The position numbers were made by a program, and so were the translations under genes. The notes beneath the pieces are model-generated. The model was not told the DNA's origin and did not search any database. It saw only the letters and a list, made by a program, of their open reading frames with translations. Positions 51,464-62,668 of a stretch of 64,000 bases of DNA are shown here, one piece after another; position 1 is the first letter of the stretch; the number at the start of each line of letters is the position of its first letter. The stretch is from assembly GCA_002354735.1 (NCBI GenBank), contig DEMD01000015.1, positions 147,304 through 211,303 on the forward strand, in the 5' to 3' direction. The DNA is from Gammaproteobacteria bacterium UBA2679 (GTDB taxonomy: Bacteria > Pseudomonadota > Gammaproteobacteria > Pseudomonadales > Oleiphilaceae).

Positions 51464-53962
51464 GTGGAAACGCAGGAGACCGCTCCGAAAGAAGCGAACA
51501 AGCCCCGAATTCTTATCACAGGTGCGAGTGGCCGAATTGGCACCGCACTCAGCAAAGTCTTCCAGAAAGAGTACCATGTTATCGGTCTGGATCGCAGCGG
51601 GCCGGGAGACGAGAAACGTCCGGCGGACCGGGTGCTTGAATGTGATTTGACCAATCCAGAGTCCATCCAGCTGGCGATGAACAAGATCATCGAGGCTCAT
51701 GGAGAACATCTCGCCGCCGTCATTCACCTCGCCGCTTATTTCGATTTTACCGGAAAGAAGAGCCCGCTCTACGACGAGGTGAACGTTCAGGGGACGCGCA
51801 ATCTTCTTAAGGCGCTGCAAGGTTTCAAAGTCGAAAGATTTCTTTACGCTTCGACCATGCTAGTGCATCAGCCTGCCGTGCCCGGCAAGAAGATCGACGA
51901 AACCACACCGCTCGCTCCGGGCTGGGCCTATCCCGAGTCGAAAGCTGAGACCGAGGCCGTAATCGAGCAGGAGCACGGCAACATACCTTATACCCTGCTG
52001 CGGCTCGCAGGCCTCTACGATGATGAATCGGCGGTGCCCACGCTCAGCCAGCAAATTGCGCGCATCTACGAGAAAGATCTCAAGAGCCATGTCTACTCCG
52101 GAGACCTGATGACAGGGCAGGCTTTCCTGCATCAGGAGGACATGATCGACGCCTTCATCCGGGTCATCGAGCGGCGTAACGAATTGGAGCAGAACGGCAG
52201 TATCCTGATCGGTGAAGATTCAGTGATGAGCTATCAGGCTTTGCAGAACCGAATAGGGGAACTACTGTTCGGCGAGGCGCAATGGCAGACCATGGTGGTG
52301 CCAGAGCTGATCGCAAAGCCTGGTGCCTGGTTGCAGGTCAAGGCAGAGCCAGTGGTGCCGGATGCGATCGATCAAGGCGAAAAACCTTTCATCCGTCCTT
52401 TCATGATCGAACTTGCTTCCGATCACTACGATCTCGATATCCGCAAGGCGAAGGCCCAGCTCGGCTGGGCGCCGAAGCACAAGATCTACTATGGATTGGA
52501 AGCACTGACCGAGAACCTCAAAAAGGATCCTTTCAGCTGGTACAAGCGCAACGGCATCACACCGCCGGACCGTGTCGAGACTGCAGAAGAAAAGGATCGC
52601 AATGCGGAAACACTGCGGAGTGAGTACGACAAAAAATTTCGTGCACAGCACAGGCGCAGTCTCTGGACGCATTTCATCAACATGGCGCTGGCCTGCTGGT
52701 TGATCACCGCGCCGTTTACCCTGGGGTATCAATCTTCGGCAATGACCATCAGCGATATGGCTTCGGGCGCTGGCCTGCTGCTCTTCGCCACCTTGTCGTT
52801 ATCGCATCGGCTCAGTGCCTTGCGGTGGGTCAGCGCCGCAATAGGACTGTGGGTCCTGTTCGCACCGCTAGCCTTCTGGGCGCCGACAGCAGCTGCCTAT
52901 ATGAACGGTACCTTGGTCGGCATGCTGATTATTGGTTTTTCTGTTGCTGTGCGACCAACGCCAGGTGTTGCCAGTGTGGCTTTGATGACTGGTCCAAGTA
53001 TTCCTCCAGGATGGTCCTACTCGCCGTCCGGTTGGTTCCAACGTGCACCCATAATTGGCCTGGCGGTCGTTGGCTTCCTCATATCCCGATATCTGGCTGC
53101 CTATCAGCTTGGCCATATCGACGGAATCTGGGACCCGTTCTTCGGTGGTGCGCTCGATAATGAGAAAAACGGTACCGAAGAAATAATCACTTCCCGTGTT
53201 TCTGAGGCGTGGCCGGTTCCAGATGCAGGTCTTGGTGCCTTGACCTACGCCCTCGAAATACTCACTGGCCTCATGGGATCGAACCGACGCTGGCGCACGA
53301 TGCCCTGGCTGGTCATGCTGTTCGGAATAATGATCGTTCCGCTGGGCGCCATTTCGATTTTCTTTATCATCATCCAGCCCATTCTGCTTGATACCTGGTG
53401 CACGCTCTGCCTCTTGGCGGCTGCAGCGATGCTTATCCAGATCCCGTACTCTATCGATGAGCTCGTCGCCACGGGGCAGTTTTTGTGGCGCAGGAAGAAA
53501 AAAGGGCGCCCACTGCTTCGGGTCTTCTTCATGGGTGACACCGATGATGGACCAGGCGACGATATCGAAGAAGATTTCGAGCAAAGGCCTCGCCGGATAC
53601 TGGCTGAAATGCTGAGTGATCTTCGCATACCCTGGAATCTCGGACTCTCCCTGCTGGTCGGGCTCTGGTTGATGCTCACACGCCTCACCATTGGACAGAC
53701 CGGTGATATGGCCAACGCAGATCATCTGATCGGTGCCTTGGCAATTACTGTTGTGGTCACGGCGTTCGCCGAATGTGCCCGACCACTGAGATTCCTGCTG
53801 ATTCCACTGGGCCTGGCGCTCTTCGTCACGCCATTCGTCTACGAGACCGAGATCATCGGTATGATCACCAGCTTCGTGAGCGGCGCGTTACTTATTGGCC
53901 TGAGCATCAGACGCGGTGCGATTAATGAACGATATGGTTCCTGGAATCGTCTGCTCGTTTAG
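51464..53962 (+). CDS. NAD-dependent epimerase fused to SPW and VKOR-like membrane domains
   Basis: 832-residue chimera. Residues about 12-345 form an extended SDR/epimerase domain (ITGASGRIGTALSKVF; IHLAAYFDF; active tyrosine probably in GWAYPESKAETEA). About 400-500 form a four-helix SPW-repeat-like membrane unit (INMALACWLITAPFTLGY). About 520-690 form a VKOR-like unit, with AWPVPDAGLGALTYALEILTGLMG and CxxC C646-C649 in DTWCTLCLL. A second SPW-like unit lies near 720-825. The loop cysteine pair of typical bacterial VKOR is not visible. It is an inner-membrane protein with a cytosolic enzyme head. GTG start with GGGAG upstream. The combined function is unknown. Confidence 0.8.
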   Translation: METQETAPKEANKPRILITGASGRIGTALSKVFQKEYHVIGLDRSGPGDEKRPADRVLECDLTNPESIQLAMNKIIEAHGEHLAAVIHLAAYFDFTGKKSPLYDEVNVQGTRNLLKALQGFKVERFLYASTMLVHQPAVPGKKIDETTPLAPGWAYPESKAETEAVIEQEHGNIPYTLLRLAGLYDDESAVPTLSQQIARIYEKDLKSHVYSGDLMTGQAFLHQEDMIDAFIRVIERRNELEQNGSILIGEDSVMSYQALQNRIGELLFGEAQWQTMVVPELIAKPGAWLQVKAEPVVPDAIDQGEKPFIRPFMIELASDHYDLDIRKAKAQLGWAPKHKIYYGLEALTENLKKDPFSWYKRNGITPPDRVETAEEKDRNAETLRSEYDKKFRAQHRRSLWTHFINMALACWLITAPFTLGYQSSAMTISDMASGAGLLLFATLSLSHRLSALRWVSAAIGLWVLFAPLAFWAPTAAAYMNGTLVGMLIIGFSVAVRPTPGVASVALMTGPSIPPGWSYSPSGWFQRAPIIGLAVVGFLISRYLAAYQLGHIDGIWDPFFGGALDNEKNGTEEIITSRVSEAWPVPDAGLGALTYALEILTGLMGSNRRWRTMPWLVMLFGIMIVPLGAISIFFIIIQPILLDTWCTLCLLAAAAMLIQIPYSIDELVATGQFLWRRKKKGRPLLRVFFMGDTDDGPGDDIEEDFEQRPRRILAEMLSDLRIPWNLGLSLLVGLWLMLTRLTIGQTGDMANADHLIGALAITVVVTAFAECARPLRFLLIPLGLALFVTPFVYETEIIGMITSFVSGALLIGLSIRRGAINERYGSWNRLLV

Positions 53963-54050: not shown

Positions 54051-54992
54051 TCAGCCGCCGTTGTCGTCCTCTACTGTGCTGGTCTTGGCCTGCTCTTTAG
54101 CTTGCGAGGATAGAGACTGCGCATTGCGAGGGTTCGAATCCTCAGCGTCCTTCCTGAATAGCGTTCTGAGCATCTTTACGGTGTCCAGTGGTTTGACCAC
54201 CGGCCGAAGACGTCGGCTGGCATGCTCATCGGCGAGCTCTACCAGCGTTTGAAGATCCTCTGGTGTGACATCTATGAACGAATCCATTTTCTGCAGTGCT
54301 GCGGCAAAATCTTCCTCGGTCAGTGCCGCGGCTCTCTGGGCCGTACGAATAACAGGGCGAGGCTGGCGCTGCGCCAGATGGGCAGGATAGCGGCGCCACG
54401 CGAAGAAGGCGTTGAAGACAACAGCGACGGTCATGAGAATGAGGGCATTGGCAAGGACCGGCATGAGCACGAAACCGAAACCCTGCTCGGTAACGCCGGC
54501 ACCACCGGTCACTGCCAGCAAGGCTGCTGCGCCGCCCGGCGGGTGCAGGCATCGAAGATAGTGCATGGCAACGATGGCGAGTCCAACCGCGATAGACAGG
54601 GCGAGGCCGCTATCGGTTATCAATTGCTGGCAGCTCACGCCGATCATAGCTGAAACTAGATAACCGCCCAGAAGGGGCCAGGGTTGCGATAATGCCCCGT
54701 GGGGCGCTGCAAACAGCAGTACTGCCGAGGCACCAATAGATGCAGTCAGCCAGATGGACTGCTCTGCCCCAGCGTAATGAGTGCCAAACAGCACGATGGC
54801 ATACATACCCAGGGCCGCACCTATACCCGAAAGCAGTTTTTCCTTATGGCTGGTAGCGTTGTCTCCCAGGCCGATGAGAAGGAAGAATTCATGCCAAAAC
54901 TTTTGCACTACAGACACACTGACTTCATCAATTACCAGTACAAATGATCGATTGAATAGAGCTGGCGGATTGTAGGTTGAAACCTGGATCAC
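54051..54992 (-). CDS. HPP-family integral membrane protein
   Basis: Membrane protein of up to 313 residues with about five helices and the HPP signature YLRCLHPPGGAAALLAVTGG. A cytosolic C-terminal stretch of about 100 residues follows (LTEEDFAAALQKMDSFIDVTPEDL), ending in a polar tail. HPP proteins are poorly characterised; some are nitrite transporters. The N-terminal start is uncertain: GTG 54992 gives the longest frame and later GTG codons are possible. It is divergent from a LysR gene, its likely regulator. Confidence 0.8.
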   Translation of the reverse strand: MIQVSTYNPPALFNRSFVLVIDEVSVSVVQKFWHEFFLLIGLGDNATSHKEKLLSGIGAALGMYAIVLFGTHYAGAEQSIWLTASIGASAVLLFAAPHGALSQPWPLLGGYLVSAMIGVSCQQLITDSGLALSIAVGLAIVAMHYLRCLHPPGGAAALLAVTGGAGVTEQGFGFVLMPVLANALILMTVAVVFNAFFAWRRYPAHLAQRQPRPVIRTAQRAAALTEEDFAAALQKMDSFIDVTPEDLQTLVELADEHASRRLRPVVKPLDTVKMLRTLFRKDAEDSNPRNAQSLSSQAKEQAKTSTVEDDNGG

Positions 54993-59469: not shown

Positions 59470-59572
59470 TCTCTTCTGAACGGCGCTCTGCAGGTCTTCG
59501 TTAGCTGCACTTGAAATCCTGCAGATCGTTGACACTATATGATGAATGATTTTTACGCCCGTGGAGACGTTG

Positions 59573-60049
59573 ATGATGAAGCCAATTAAGGTCCTGATGC
59601 TATCCCTGCTGCTTGGGGCAGGTGCTGCAAATGCTGCTGGCGCCGACTCCGAAGTCGTGGAGGTTTACAAGACTCCGTGGTGCGGCTGCTGCACCGCCTG
59701 GGTCGATCATCTGGAGGCCAATGGCTTCGAAGTCAAGGTTCACAAGATCGAGGACCTTGCCCCCATCAAGCAAAAACTTGGCGTGCCATCTTCACTGCAG
59801 AGCTGCCATACGGCAGAGGTAGGCGGATACACCTTTGAGGGTCATGTGCCGGCGGAAGATATGCAACGGGTTCTGAAGGCAAAACCTGATGTACAGGGAC
59901 TTGCGGTTCCGGGTATGCCCATAGGATCGCCTGGCATGGAAACGGGTGGGGAGCCTGACAGATACGATGTGATACAGTTTGGCCAAAAGGGGCAGTCTGT
60001 CTACTCGAGCCATGTGGGATTGCGTGAGCCGCCGTCCGGGAAACATTGA
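59573..60049 (+). CDS. periplasmic DUF411 metal-binding protein
   Basis: 158-residue exported protein with a signal peptide (KVLMLSLLLGAGAANAAGA). The DUF411 domain has the metal-binding motif TPWCGCCTAW, followed by LQSCHTAEVGGYTFEGHVPAEDM and GLAVPGMPIGSPGME. DUF411 proteins occur in copper and Cus/Czc resistance clusters and probably bind Cu(I). The ATG at 59573 is preferred because GTGGAG lies six bases upstream; an earlier ATG at 59546 lacks a ribosome site. It opens the metal-response region. Confidence 0.88.
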   Translation: MMKPIKVLMLSLLLGAGAANAAGADSEVVEVYKTPWCGCCTAWVDHLEANGFEVKVHKIEDLAPIKQKLGVPSSLQSCHTAEVGGYTFEGHVPAEDMQRVLKAKPDVQGLAVPGMPIGSPGMETGGEPDRYDVIQFGQKGQSVYSSHVGLREPPSGKH

Positions 60050-60521: not shown

Positions 60522-61877
60522 CTAATGGCCACGGATGGCCATCGTTGGATTACTCTCAGCCATCGTGAGCTCGACCCGCACACATAGGCCGCCAAGTCTG
60601 GCCGATGCTGAAATGTCCATCACACCCCCATAGTCATTGACAAGCTCTCTTACGATAGCGAGCCCAAGTCCGTGGCCTTCGCGCTGATCATCGATACGGA
60701 AGCCACGATTACCCAGAAGTGAGCGTTGATCTTCAGGTACGCCAGGCCCGTCATCCTCCACCTGAATGCAGAATTGGCGGCGCGAGCCTTTCAGGGTGAC
60801 AACGACGACGGAACTCGCCCACTTCCCGGCATTGTCCACCAGGTTTCCCAAAAGCTCATTGAAATCCTGCTCTTCGATAGGCCAACGGTCACTGGGGCCG
60901 AAACCACTCTCTAACTCAAAACGCTTCTGCGGGTACAGGCGCCCAAGCATCCACAGCAAGTTGCGAGCCTGGCTCGATAAACTGGCCGTCTTACCGGCCT
61001 GTGGACCTGATAGGCGATTTCGGCGCAGCTCGGCGTCCAGTTGTCGATGCAGTGTTCGCAGCCGATCAGTCATCTGCTGACGCAGCGCCTGATCGATTTC
61101 AATAGTCGGGTCCTCGAGGATCTGCGTCAGGGCTGTAACCGGGGTCTTGATGCTATGCGAAAGATTGCCCAGCGCCTCTCTGGACTTCCGTACTTGTTTG
61201 TCTAGCGTATCGAGCAAACTGTTGAGCTGCCTGACGAGGCCAAGAAACTCAACCGGCGTAGCCTGGTCGAAACGACTGATCCGCCCAGCCTGCAGGTCAG
61301 CCAGACTGTGGCGAAGCGCCTTCAGTGGACGCAGTGAAAGATGAATCGCCGCAATAATGAGCACAACGAGCATGCACAGCAGGACAACGGAAACCACGCC
61401 GACCCAGAGGTGAAGTCTGGCCTCATCACTTTCGAGCTGTTCGAGGTCCTCTGCAACAACGACCACACCCGGCTGACCTTTGATACGGAACGGTTGTTGA
61501 ACCGCGTAGAGGCGCCTCTGGTCGACGACGATGAACAGTTTCTCAGATGTGGTGGGCAACTGAAGGGGCTCCAGGGTTGCAGCGAGATCCTGCGGATTTG
61601 ACCAACTCTGCAAGCCTATCCTGATCGCCACCATATGGTGAAAGGCTTTTGCAAAAAACGTATCATTCTCGAACCAGCTGTCCAGATCGGGATACTCTTC
61701 CTCGATCCTGCTCACAATATAGTCGGCCTCCTGCTGTAGCCGATCGCTGAGAAAGTTCTTGAGCATGGCATCCATGAGCGCGCCATGAACGACCCAGGCG
61801 ATCAGCATCAATACGGTAGCGAATGGGAGCAACCAGAGCAGGAGTGTACTTCTGATCGAACGGCGGGCCCTAGTCAT
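60522..61877 (-). CDS. membrane sensor histidine kinase of a metal/envelope system
   Basis: 451-residue sensor kinase. The first transmembrane helix is near residues 10-30, a periplasmic sensor region covers about 31-165, and the second helix is near 166-188 (VVSVVLLCMLVVLIIAA). A HAMP-like stretch follows, then HisKA (LSHSIKTPVTALTQIL) and HATPase (LLGNLVDNAGKWAS, VEDDGPGVPEDQ, GHGLGLAIVRELVNDYGG). It is similar in layout to PhoQ/QseC-type kinases. The regulator gene overlaps it by 8 bases. Neighbouring metal-related genes suggest it senses a metal; the ligand is not identifiable. Confidence 0.9.
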   Translation of the reverse strand: MTRARRSIRSTLLLWLLPFATVLMLIAWVVHGALMDAMLKNFLSDRLQQEADYIVSRIEEEYPDLDSWFENDTFFAKAFHHMVAIRIGLQSWSNPQDLAATLEPLQLPTTSEKLFIVVDQRRLYAVQQPFRIKGQPGVVVVAEDLEQLESDEARLHLWVGVVSVVLLCMLVVLIIAAIHLSLRPLKALRHSLADLQAGRISRFDQATPVEFLGLVRQLNSLLDTLDKQVRKSREALGNLSHSIKTPVTALTQILEDPTIEIDQALRQQMTDRLRTLHRQLDAELRRNRLSGPQAGKTASLSSQARNLLWMLGRLYPQKRFELESGFGPSDRWPIEEQDFNELLGNLVDNAGKWASSVVVVTLKGSRRQFCIQVEDDGPGVPEDQRSLLGNRGFRIDDQREGHGLGLAIVRELVNDYGGVMDISASARLGGLCVRVELTMAESNPTMAIRGH

Positions 61878-62532
61878 CAGGTTTGAAGCAGTAGCCCTGG
61901 CCGCGCATGGTCAGAATAGAGGACTTGCCGACTATGGCGCGGAGCCGATGAACATAGGCTTCGATGGTATTCGCACTTGCTTCCGTATCAAGATCATAGA
62001 GCTGTTCCAGAAGCTCATGCTTGGAAATGACCCAGCCTGGTCGACTCATGAGGGCCCTCAGCAGACGAAACTCTGTTGCGGTGAGGACTTGCCAACCGTC
62101 GGTCGTCTGGACCTGCTGTCTGTCACCGTCGAGTATGAATTTGCCGGCACTGAGTCGGTTCTCCGCGCGACCCTCACTACGGCGAACGAGGGCGTGAAGT
62201 CTGGCCAGAAGTTCTTCTATATGAAAAGGCTTCGCCAGATAGTCGTCAGCGCCTGCTTTCAGACCATTGACCTTGTCTTGCCAGTCGCCTCGGGCAGTGA
62301 GAAGCAGAACAGGCAACCGCTTGCCAGCTTCGCGCCATCGGCGAAGAACATCGAGACCATTGCCATCCGGCAAGCCTATATCGACGACGGCGACTTTGTA
62401 ATCTTCCTGCAGGCCGAGCTGAAGCGCGCTTTGCGCGGACCCAACCTGATCAACTACGAAGCCGCCAGCCATGAGATTTCTGCAGGTAGTTCGTGCCAGC
62501 ATCAAGTCATCTTCGACCAGTAGTAATCTCAT
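61870..62532 (-). CDS. OmpR/PhoP-family response regulator
   Basis: 220-residue response regulator. The receiver begins MRLLLVEDDLMLARTTCR with the phosphoacceptor aspartate in VAVVDIGLPDGNGLD and the lysine in LAKPFHIEELLARL. The C-terminal winged helix ends in ASANTIEAYVHRLRAIVGKSSILTMRGQGYCF. I took the ATG at 62532; the upstream extension has no ribosome site. It is paired with the overlapping sensor kinase. Tandem repeats at 60153 and 62669 are candidate binding sites. Confidence 0.92.
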   Translation of the reverse strand: MRLLLVEDDLMLARTTCRNLMAGGFVVDQVGSAQSALQLGLQEDYKVAVVDIGLPDGNGLDVLRRWREAGKRLPVLLLTARGDWQDKVNGLKAGADDYLAKPFHIEELLARLHALVRRSEGRAENRLSAGKFILDGDRQQVQTTDGWQVLTATEFRLLRALMSRPGWVISKHELLEQLYDLDTEASANTIEAYVHRLRAIVGKSSILTMRGQGYCFKPDD

Positions 62533-62668
62533 TATGGATGACCAGTCAGATTGCGAAAGTGGCGGGTTCTGCGCCAGCTGAGCAGAATGCCTTACCAACC
62601 TTAAACGAAACTGAATTCTATGACTTTACGCCGCTGTTAAGGAAAAATGAAATCACTTCGGCTTTCGG

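What the first reader, a model, noticed from the sequence alone, without database searches (positions are those of the whole stretch)
51464..53962. Epimerase/SPW/VKOR-like chimeric membrane protein
One 832-residue frame joins an NAD-dependent epimerase-type domain to SPW-like four-helix units flanking a VKOR-like unit with CxxC (646-649). The loop cysteine pair normally used by bacterial VKOR is not visible. VKOR fused to a sugar-nucleotide-type epimerase is not a textbook arrangement; it may couple a quinone or thiol redox step to a cytosolic carbohydrate or cofactor reaction. It is divergent from hrpB and not in an obvious operon.
Basis: partly seen in the sequence, partly recalled or inferred. 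Interest (0 to 1): 0.72.

Follow-up and report, generated by a model that had tools for sequence, protein, structure and literature searches.

The report
Dehydrogenase fused to repurposed VKOR fold
This is a bacterial membrane protein, found in many species, that joins an NAD-dependent enzyme to a relative of vitamin K reductase which seems to have given up its usual redox job, so the enzyme half, and not the vitamin K reductase half, probably does the chemistry.

Summary
ORF 51464-53962 is one 832-residue frame: an extended SDR (Epimerase), SPW, VKOR and a second SPW. All 120 listed relatives carry the three domains, so it is no chimera. The interpretation, a thiol/quinone step coupled to the SDR, is not supported.

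The VKOR loop cysteine pair is absent in all 445 sequences aligned. CxxC itself is absent in 166 of 444, a set enriched for such rows, over several changes on a tree. The SDR catalytic Tyr and Lys are kept in 123 of 123 CxxC-less (SA) rows that reach there.

The SPW-VKOR-SPW module also stands alone. In 14 of 14 such loci with flanks in hand an SDR lies on the same strand beside it: classical 11, extended 2, NDUFA9-like 1. A deep branch often sits in copper/heavy-metal islands with a trehalase-like GH15; the window's branch does not.

Best reading: a VKOR-derived membrane platform for an exchangeable SDR, the SDR being the catalyst. The substrate is unknown; I favour a membrane isoprenoid or quinone. 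Function is inferred, not shown.

The parts
51464..53962 (+). Whole gene: SDR-SPW-VKOR-SPW fusion, 832 aa
51509..52213 (+). Extended SDR (Epimerase, PF01370), residues 16-250; the SDR fold extends to about residue 366
51521..51541 (+). NAD-binding GxxGxxG (G20, G23, G26); D43 at the end of strand 2 suggests NAD rather than NADP (SDR rule recalled)
   Evidence: G20 316 of 319, G23 315 of 316, G26 315 of 316, D43 317 of 320
51929..51943 (+). SDR catalytic YxxxK (Y156, K160)
   Evidence: both present in 341 of the 349 rows with a letter in either column; of the 8 others one is a real loss (L090), one is truncated (P0235) and six are stand-alone or split membrane halves with no SDR there; SA rows 123 of 123
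52664..52942 (+). First SPW unit, residues 401-493, four TM helices
   Evidence: PF03779; model helices 400-420, 425-444, 453-470, 476-494
53048..53452 (+). VKOR-like unit, residues 529-663, four TM helices
   Evidence: PF07884 E 2.9e-25
53108..53221 (+). Predicted periplasmic loop, residues 549-586, with WDPFF and NGTEEIITS; no cysteine; T571 stands where the second loop Cys of a canonical VKOR stands
   Evidence: P558 445 of 445, G570 444 of 444, S577 443 of 444; alignment to a canonical VKOR
53399..53410 (+). CxxC (C646, C649); present here but absent in 166 of 444 aligned relatives (set enriched for CxxC-less rows)
53480..53632 (+). Predicted cytosolic charged linker, residues 673-723 (11 K/R, 11 D/E)
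53633..53908 (+). Second SPW unit, residues 724-815, four TM helices
   Evidence: two SPW stretches; model helices
48751..51339 (-). hrpB helicase, divergent neighbour (not part of the system)
   Evidence: HrpB_C E 1.9e-45
54051..54992 (-). HPP-family membrane protein, convergent neighbour (no link shown)
   Evidence: PF04982 E 4.9e-47

Best explanation
The protein is a membrane-anchored NAD-dependent SDR enzyme. Its chemistry is done by the cytosolic extended-SDR domain. The 12-helix SPW-VKOR-SPW half is a VKOR-derived platform that has left the disulfide-relay trade: it holds the SDR at the membrane and presents a membrane-dissolved substrate, most likely an isoprenoid (a quinone or a polyprenyl-linked compound), through the old VKOR pocket. 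SHOWN by sequence: the architecture, its conservation, absence of the VKOR loop cysteines, repeated loss of CxxC, retention of the SDR Tyr/Lys, and the pairing of stand-alone platforms with different kinds of SDR. INFERRED: topology, NAD preference, that the platform docks the SDR, and that the substrate is an isoprenoid. In members with CxxC (this one included) the pair may be a structural disulfide or a redox switch; in the 444 rows read it is kept or lost as a pair.
For: CxxC columns: CC 278, SA 152, AT 6, GT 6, ST 2, gap 1 of 445; none with a single Cys (SA rows were enriched on purpose by the query). Quick tree of 101 representatives without the CxxC columns: 5 changes between CC and not-CC, at least 4 forced by starred (SH-aLRT) branches. 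Loop Cys pair in 0 of 445. Invariant: Q548 and P558 in 445 of 445, G570, D587, W610, Q638 in 444 of 444, so the VKOR unit is under constraint for something else. SDR Tyr/Lys in 123 of 123 SA rows that reach there. Stand-alone SPW-VKOR-SPW: 14 of 14 loci with flanks have a same-strand SDR, 13 at -31 to +93 bp, one with GH15 between: 11 classical, 2 extended (Pontibacter 44% identical to this SDR, E 1e-102; L166), 1 NDUFA9-like (L148). Control: adh_short in 2 of 118 and 2 of 117 genes flanking fused copies. Where a classical SDR accompanies a fused copy (Cupriavidus, L090 and L113, 99.9% identical), the fused SDR has lost YxxxK.
Against: The substrate is a guess: the SDR is nearest in fold to UDP-sugar epimerases, and the recurring GH15 and sugar genes point to a sugar instead. 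CxxC is conserved as a pair in most members from genomes (66 of the 67 retained rows of the first 80 loci, one gap; 25 of 25 further loci read), which is hard to square with no thiol role at all. The quinone-binding CXXC+4 residue is Ala in 435 of 444, but this tells less than it seems: the four-cysteine VKOR of G009 has Leu there and PMC4555120 reports no conservation of that site in one VKOR clade; if it matters, it also speaks against a quinone in the pocket. SPW has no known function. The VKOR part was not compared with a solved VKOR. The 14 stand-alone loci are not independent (6 Halobacteria, 5 Pseudomonas/Stutzerimonas, two of these in one genome). The control tallies list only 25 families each and cover classical SDRs only.
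Confidence: 0.42

Rival explanations
1. One reading: a real thiol-quinone oxidoreductase. CxxC passes electrons to quinone and is coupled, directly or indirectly, to the SDR reaction.
For: VKOR family match; CxxC kept in 278 of 444 and always as a pair, and in nearly all members taken from genomes; loop serine kept, S577 in 443 of 444; periplasmic thiol genes (DsbA, CcdA, TlpA, DsbE or SCO) near some deep-branch copies, L104, L110, L111, L115, L147.
Against: CxxC lost repeatedly with the rest intact; no loop pair in 445; SDR and CxxC on opposite faces; the S. koreensis copy in a copper island has SA; hosts have DsbB in 17 of 18 genomes.
Confidence: 0.2
2. Sugar pathway: the SDR oxidises or epimerises a sugar released by the neighbouring trehalase-like GH15, and the membrane half is only an anchor, possibly making a protective glycan.
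For: GH15 or trehalase-like gene in the cluster in 5 of 6 haloarchaeal loci, Stutzerimonas L109, Pseudomonas L091 and L143 (not L092, L144), Cupriavidus L113, Nitrospirota L117 and Pontibacter L118; the S. meliloti copy follows a sugar ABC/LacI/Gfo-Idh-MocA cluster; SDR fold nearest NDP-sugar epimerases.
Against: GH15 near only 1 of 80 copies; SDR far below NCBIfam cut-offs for GalE, HpnA and the other listed models; a membrane half this conserved is more than an anchor (inference).
Confidence: 0.25
3. Metal handling: the module binds or senses copper or other metals, and the SDR is accessory.
For: A gene named as copper, mercury or heavy metal in 18 of 26 annotated plasmid loci, five more ambiguous; Met/His-rich N-termini in several stand-alone forms, 12 His in the Cupriavidus linker and a heavy-metal-binding domain at the end of the L166 SDR.
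Against: I picked the loci for diversity and plasmids are rich in metal genes; the window's branch lacks this context (four-helix Cu protein 0 of 80, DUF411 1 of 80); the window protein has no Met/His-rich linker.
Confidence: 0.1
4. Chance frame or chimera of unrelated genes.
For: None found.
Against: All 120 listed relatives have the same domains over 91-100% of the query.
Confidence: 0.01

Closest known systems
VKOR / DsbB thiol-quinone oxidoreductases (PF07884)
   Same: VKOR by profile (E 2.9e-25), CxxC at the start of the fourth helix, loop serine kept (S577, 443 of 444)
   Different: No loop cysteine pair in 445 rows, CxxC dispensable in several lineages, no thioredoxin domain found by Pfam, fused SDR and SPW units
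SPW proteins (PF03779)
   Same: Two SPW stretches
   Different: PMC8078820 (passages) mentions SPW with a VKOR or an epimerase; here both, with VKOR between two SPW units
Extended SDRs: NDP-sugar epimerases, 3beta-HSD, HpnA
   Different: Far below the NCBIfam cut-offs of all models shown; Q219 (349 of 351) stands where, from recall, NDP-sugar epimerases have the phosphate-binding Arg
NDUFA9-like SDRs of respiratory complex I
   Same: One haloarchaeal copy has such an SDR as its next gene (L148)
   Different: The window's SDR keeps YxxxK; NDUFA9-like proteins match the family's SDRs only weakly (best E 3.6e-5, to the Jiella SDR)

Membership tests
VKOR (PF07884) | Family profile above curated cut-off | tested here: met
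   89.4 bits against 27.5
VKOR (PF07884) | CxxC at the start of VKOR TM4 | tested here: met
   C646/C649 in this protein; absent in 166 of 444 aligned relatives
VKOR (PF07884) | Loop cysteine pair (Cys43, Cys51 human; PMC4555120 passages) | tested here: not met
   0 of 445; T571 in the second position
VKOR (PF07884) | Loop Ser (Ser57 human) | tested here: met
   S577, 443 of 444
VKOR (PF07884) | CXXC+4 aromatic or Arg, linked to quinone binding (PMC11208910 passages) | tested here: inconclusive
   Ala 435, Gly 7, Thr 2 of 444; but a four-cysteine VKOR has Leu there and one VKOR clade does not conserve the site (PMC4555120)
VKOR (PF07884) | Disulfide-forming, quinone-reducing activity | not testable with these tools
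   needs a bench assay
VKOR (PF07884) | Similarity of the VKOR part to solved VKOR structures | tested here: inconclusive
   Rows shown by the structure searches are all SDR matches; no sequence match in the PDB at E up to 1, one chance-level match at E 2.2
Extended SDR (PF01370) | GxxGxxG and YxxxK | tested here: met
NDP-sugar 4-epimerase (GalE) or HpnA | NCBIfam model cut-off | tested here: not met
   GalE 45.9 of 262.3 bits, HpnA 49.4 of 367.65
SPW (PF03779) | SPW profile, repeated | tested here: met
   two stretches, 64.9 bits against 31.5

The most novel reading that the evidence does not exclude
A VKOR-fold membrane protein family has abandoned thiol chemistry and become a docking and substrate-presenting platform for interchangeable short-chain dehydrogenases (extended, classical or NDUFA9-like), fused or as a neighbouring gene: a new kind of membrane dehydrogenase, spread across Bacteria and Halobacteria and repeatedly placed in metal-stress islands.
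Probability: 0.33. Interest if true: 0.72.

Novelty: new variant of a known kind. Interest (0 to 1): 0.52.

Why it matters
Database names call these proteins vitamin K epoxide reductases, which implies a disulfide or quinone function that the sequences argue against. If the reading holds, it is a natural case of a VKOR fold reused without its cysteines, and the genomes that carry it hold an uncharacterised membrane dehydrogenase. The exchange of SDR partners gives a direct handle: whatever the three SDR types share as substrate is what the membrane half supplies. The recurrence of the deep branch in copper and heavy-metal islands gives a phenotype to test.

Tried and rejected
A conserved operon for the window's branch: neighbours are mostly unshared; the only strong one is a CaCA (Na/Ca exchanger) gene, directly downstream on the same strand (about -25 to +66 bp, measured between matches, not stop codons) in 11 of 80 loci (13 of 80 within the flanks). 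I could not fit it into a mechanism. Frameshift or chimera: rejected. Fusion as the host's only disulfide oxidase: rejected for 17 of 18 genomes, which have DsbB. The first AlphaFold job on 19 rows was poor, pLDDT 68.2, and was replaced by the 102-row job. No significant PDB sequence match for the membrane half. The 50 rows shown by Foldseek and by VIA are all SDR matches, so the VKOR part is untested there. A search for S. meliloti locus tags gave one paper, listing only, not followed. Rfam: no match in the window at gathering thresholds. One search's alignment to a 'canonical VKOR' used a wrong frame and is discarded; one search replaces it. The linker search failed in most fused proteins; only the N-termini of stand-alone forms and the Cupriavidus linker are used from it. 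I first took the Ala at CXXC+4 for a third missing VKOR hallmark; on checking, a four-cysteine VKOR has Leu there and PMC4555120 reports a clade without that residue, so I no longer count it, and lowered the best reading from 0.45 to 0.42 and the novel case from 0.35 to 0.33, and raised the thiol rival from 0.17 to 0.20.

Dropped or partial sets: for the neighbour tallies 10 loci of Billgrantia and a near relative and the window were left out, and I passed 118 of 130 and 117 of 129 genes; each tally shows only its first 25 families. 461 sequences were reduced to 445 distinct ones. In one search my pattern read the CxxC site in 25 of 26 further loci (L158 not read); all 25 had CxxC, so the CxxC-less share in genomes is well below the 166 of 444 of my enriched set. 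Not counted among the 14 stand-alone loci: Jiella L104 (annotated as two ORFs, probably disrupted), the P. fungorum copy (L146, in pieces), broken copies in G983 and G925, and stand-alone-looking proteins without flanks in hand, such as Hahella P0140. Plasmid locus L094 carries no annotation and is outside the count of 26.

Full report
What is there. The frame at 51464-53962 is open from a GTG start to a stop, 832 residues. Pfam finds an NAD-dependent Epimerase domain (16-250), two SPW stretches and a VKOR domain (529-663), all well above the curated cut-offs. Each of the 120 best relatives listed has the same three families (2527 proteins reached E 0.001, the rest not seen). In an alignment of 19 of them the identity to this protein is 58-77% and C646/C649 are invariant. 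A first structure job with 19 rows was poor; with 102 rows the model has mean pLDDT 92.3 and pTM 0.86: a Rossmann-fold SDR, four helices, a VKOR-like bundle, a charged linker and four more helices. Charges place the SDR, the 604-613 and 673-723 loops and the C-terminus inside, and the 549-586 loop and the CxxC outside (inference by the positive-inside rule).

How common. A profile of the membrane half found matches in 6 of 398 genomes drawn from the phylum of G004, 8 of 390 from the order of G011 and 6 of 397 from the order of G004; the centre genomes are among them. So the family is patchy, at one or two percent of genomes there. It reaches Alpha-, Beta- and Gammaproteobacteria (classes recalled from the organism names) and, without the fused SDR, Nitrospirota, Bacteroidota and Halobacteria. 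136 of 72,556 plasmid records hold a match at E up to 1e-30, 118 of them over at least 80% of the query; 73 of the 136 are Sinorhizobium.

The VKOR part does not look like a working VKOR. I aligned 445 distinct sequences. None has the loop cysteine pair; 101 have one cysteine in the searched stretch, and the 20 of these that were printed all have it at its first position, before the loop. Aligned to a canonical four-cysteine VKOR, the second loop cysteine falls on T571 and the loop serine on S577. CxxC is present in 278, SA in 152, AT in 6, GT in 6, ST in 2, and one row has a gap. The SA rows are over-represented because the search was seeded with them; in the 67 retained rows of the first 80 loci it is 66 CC and one gap, and in 25 of 25 further loci read it is CC. 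CxxC-less members are not metagenome noise: they include Bradyrhizobium sp. sBnM-33 on a 9.2 Mb contig, Microvirga and Sphingomonas. On a quick tree of 101 representatives built without the CxxC columns the two states need 5 changes, at least 4 of them forced by starred branches. Yet Q548 and P558 (445 of 445) and G570, D587, W610 and Q638 (444 of 444) never change. The unit is therefore held to some task other than the full cysteine relay. A point that counts for less: the residue four after CxxC, Tyr, Trp or Arg in the VKOR and DsbB enzymes of PMC11208910 and linked there to quinone binding (passages), is Ala 435, Gly 7, Thr 2 of 444; but the four-cysteine VKOR of G009 has Leu there, and PMC4555120 reports no conservation of that site in one of five VKOR clades (passages).

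The two halves also occur apart, and then side by side. I found 14 loci in which SPW-VKOR-SPW stands alone and whose flanks I hold: six in Halobacteria (L096-L099, L119, L148; L099 and L119 from one strain), five in or near Pseudomonas/Stutzerimonas (L091 and L092 from one genome, L109, L143, L144), one each in Nitrospirota (L117), Bacteroidota (L118) and the order of G004 (L166). In all 14 an SDR gene lies on the same strand, 13 of them within -31 to +93 bp and one after an intervening GH15. The partner is not always the same protein. Eleven are classical SDRs of one family: three of these and the Cupriavidus one are 50-63% identical to one another, and the rest match them at 63-97%. Two are extended SDRs; that of Pontibacter is 44% identical to the window's domain with E 1e-102. 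One is NDUFA9-like and lacks YxxxK, which the other 13 have. As a control, genes flanking fused copies match adh_short in 2 of 118 and 2 of 117 cases (lists capped at 25 families, extended SDRs not tallied). Fused copies lack the classical partner: in the 80 loci the best classical-SDR hit is 26-33% identical, in 16 loci. The one exception seen is Cupriavidus (L090 and L113, fused proteins 99.9% identical), where the classical SDR is next door and the fused SDR has lost YxxxK. This reads as exchange of one SDR for another on a constant membrane platform.

Context. A deep branch sits in copper and heavy-metal islands. Of 26 annotated plasmid loci, 18 carry a gene named as copper, mercury or heavy metal within the 6-10 kb shown, five are ambiguous (L104, L111, L112, L120, L147: DUF411, SCO, plastocyanin, metal-sensitive regulator or cation transporter only) and three have none (L100, L116, and L101 with only a ZIP transporter). 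I picked these loci for diversity and plasmids favour such genes, so this is a lead and not a rate. A trehalase-like GH15 recurs in the cluster there, and Met- or His-rich tails or a heavy-metal-binding domain (L166) hint at metal contact. The window's own branch lacks this: GH15 in 1 of 80 loci, the four-helix copper protein in none, DUF411 in 1. There the one strong neighbour is a CaCA exchanger directly downstream in 11 of 80 loci. The window has a DUF411 gene 5.6 kb downstream, which may be chance.

How it most likely works. The shared element across the arrangements seen is an SDR plus the membrane platform; the cysteines are not. I therefore put the chemistry in the SDR and take the VKOR-like unit for a docking and substrate-presenting module. 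VKOR binds isoprenoid quinones, and SDRs that act on membrane lipids are well known (recalled), so an isoprenoid substrate is my first guess; a sugar released by the GH15 is the main rival. A thiol role in the members that keep CxxC is not excluded. None of this has been tested at the bench.

What is known. One search found one paper with 'SPW repeat', 'SPW domain' or PF03779 in the held library, PMC8078820; it says some SPW proteins carry a VKOR or an epimerase domain (passages). Other searches for VKOR with epimerase, SPW or domain architecture (listings) gave nothing else that I recognised as being about this fusion. The VKOR phylogeny PMC4555120 (passages) does not contain the words epimerase or SPW and culled sequences lacking known conserved residues, so such proteins would have been left out. 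Searches joining VKOR with copper resistance, GH15 or the four-helix copper protein gave three papers; the one opened, PMC6803676 (passages), names a VKOR in a metal-resistance plasmid region without mention of SPW; the other two were seen as listings only. Subscription papers are not covered, so this is no proof of absence.

Verdict. The fusion itself is a known architecture and ordinary in that sense. The dispensable cysteines and the exchangeable SDR partner are the interesting part.

Noticed in passing
window 59546-60049: DUF411 protein (PF04214, E 3.7e-27), a family annotated near copper genes in related loci; followed by a two-component pair at 60522-62598.
   Followed up: partly
L002, L004, L006, L008, L012, L018, L025, L038, L041, L056, L064: A CaCA (Na/Ca exchanger) gene directly downstream of the fusion on the same strand in 11 of 80 loci; the other ten are 30-56% identical to the L008 copy; reason unknown.
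   Followed up: partly
L166:8479-9762: Extended SDR with a C-terminal heavy-metal-binding domain (PF19335, E 4.6e-13), overlapping the stand-alone SPW-VKOR-SPW gene by 31 bp.
   Followed up: partly
L117:5998-7434 and L118:5923-7494 N-termini; L090:5778-8468 linker: Met/His-rich stretches: Manganitrophus 10 Met + 3 His and Pontibacter 11 Met + 6 His in the first 60 residues; 12 His in the 59-residue Cupriavidus-type linker.
   Followed up: no
L146, L104, genomes G983 and G925: Disrupted or split copies; described only, not mended.
   Followed up: no
window 54051-54992: HPP-family membrane protein convergent with the fusion; no link to it found.
   Followed up: no
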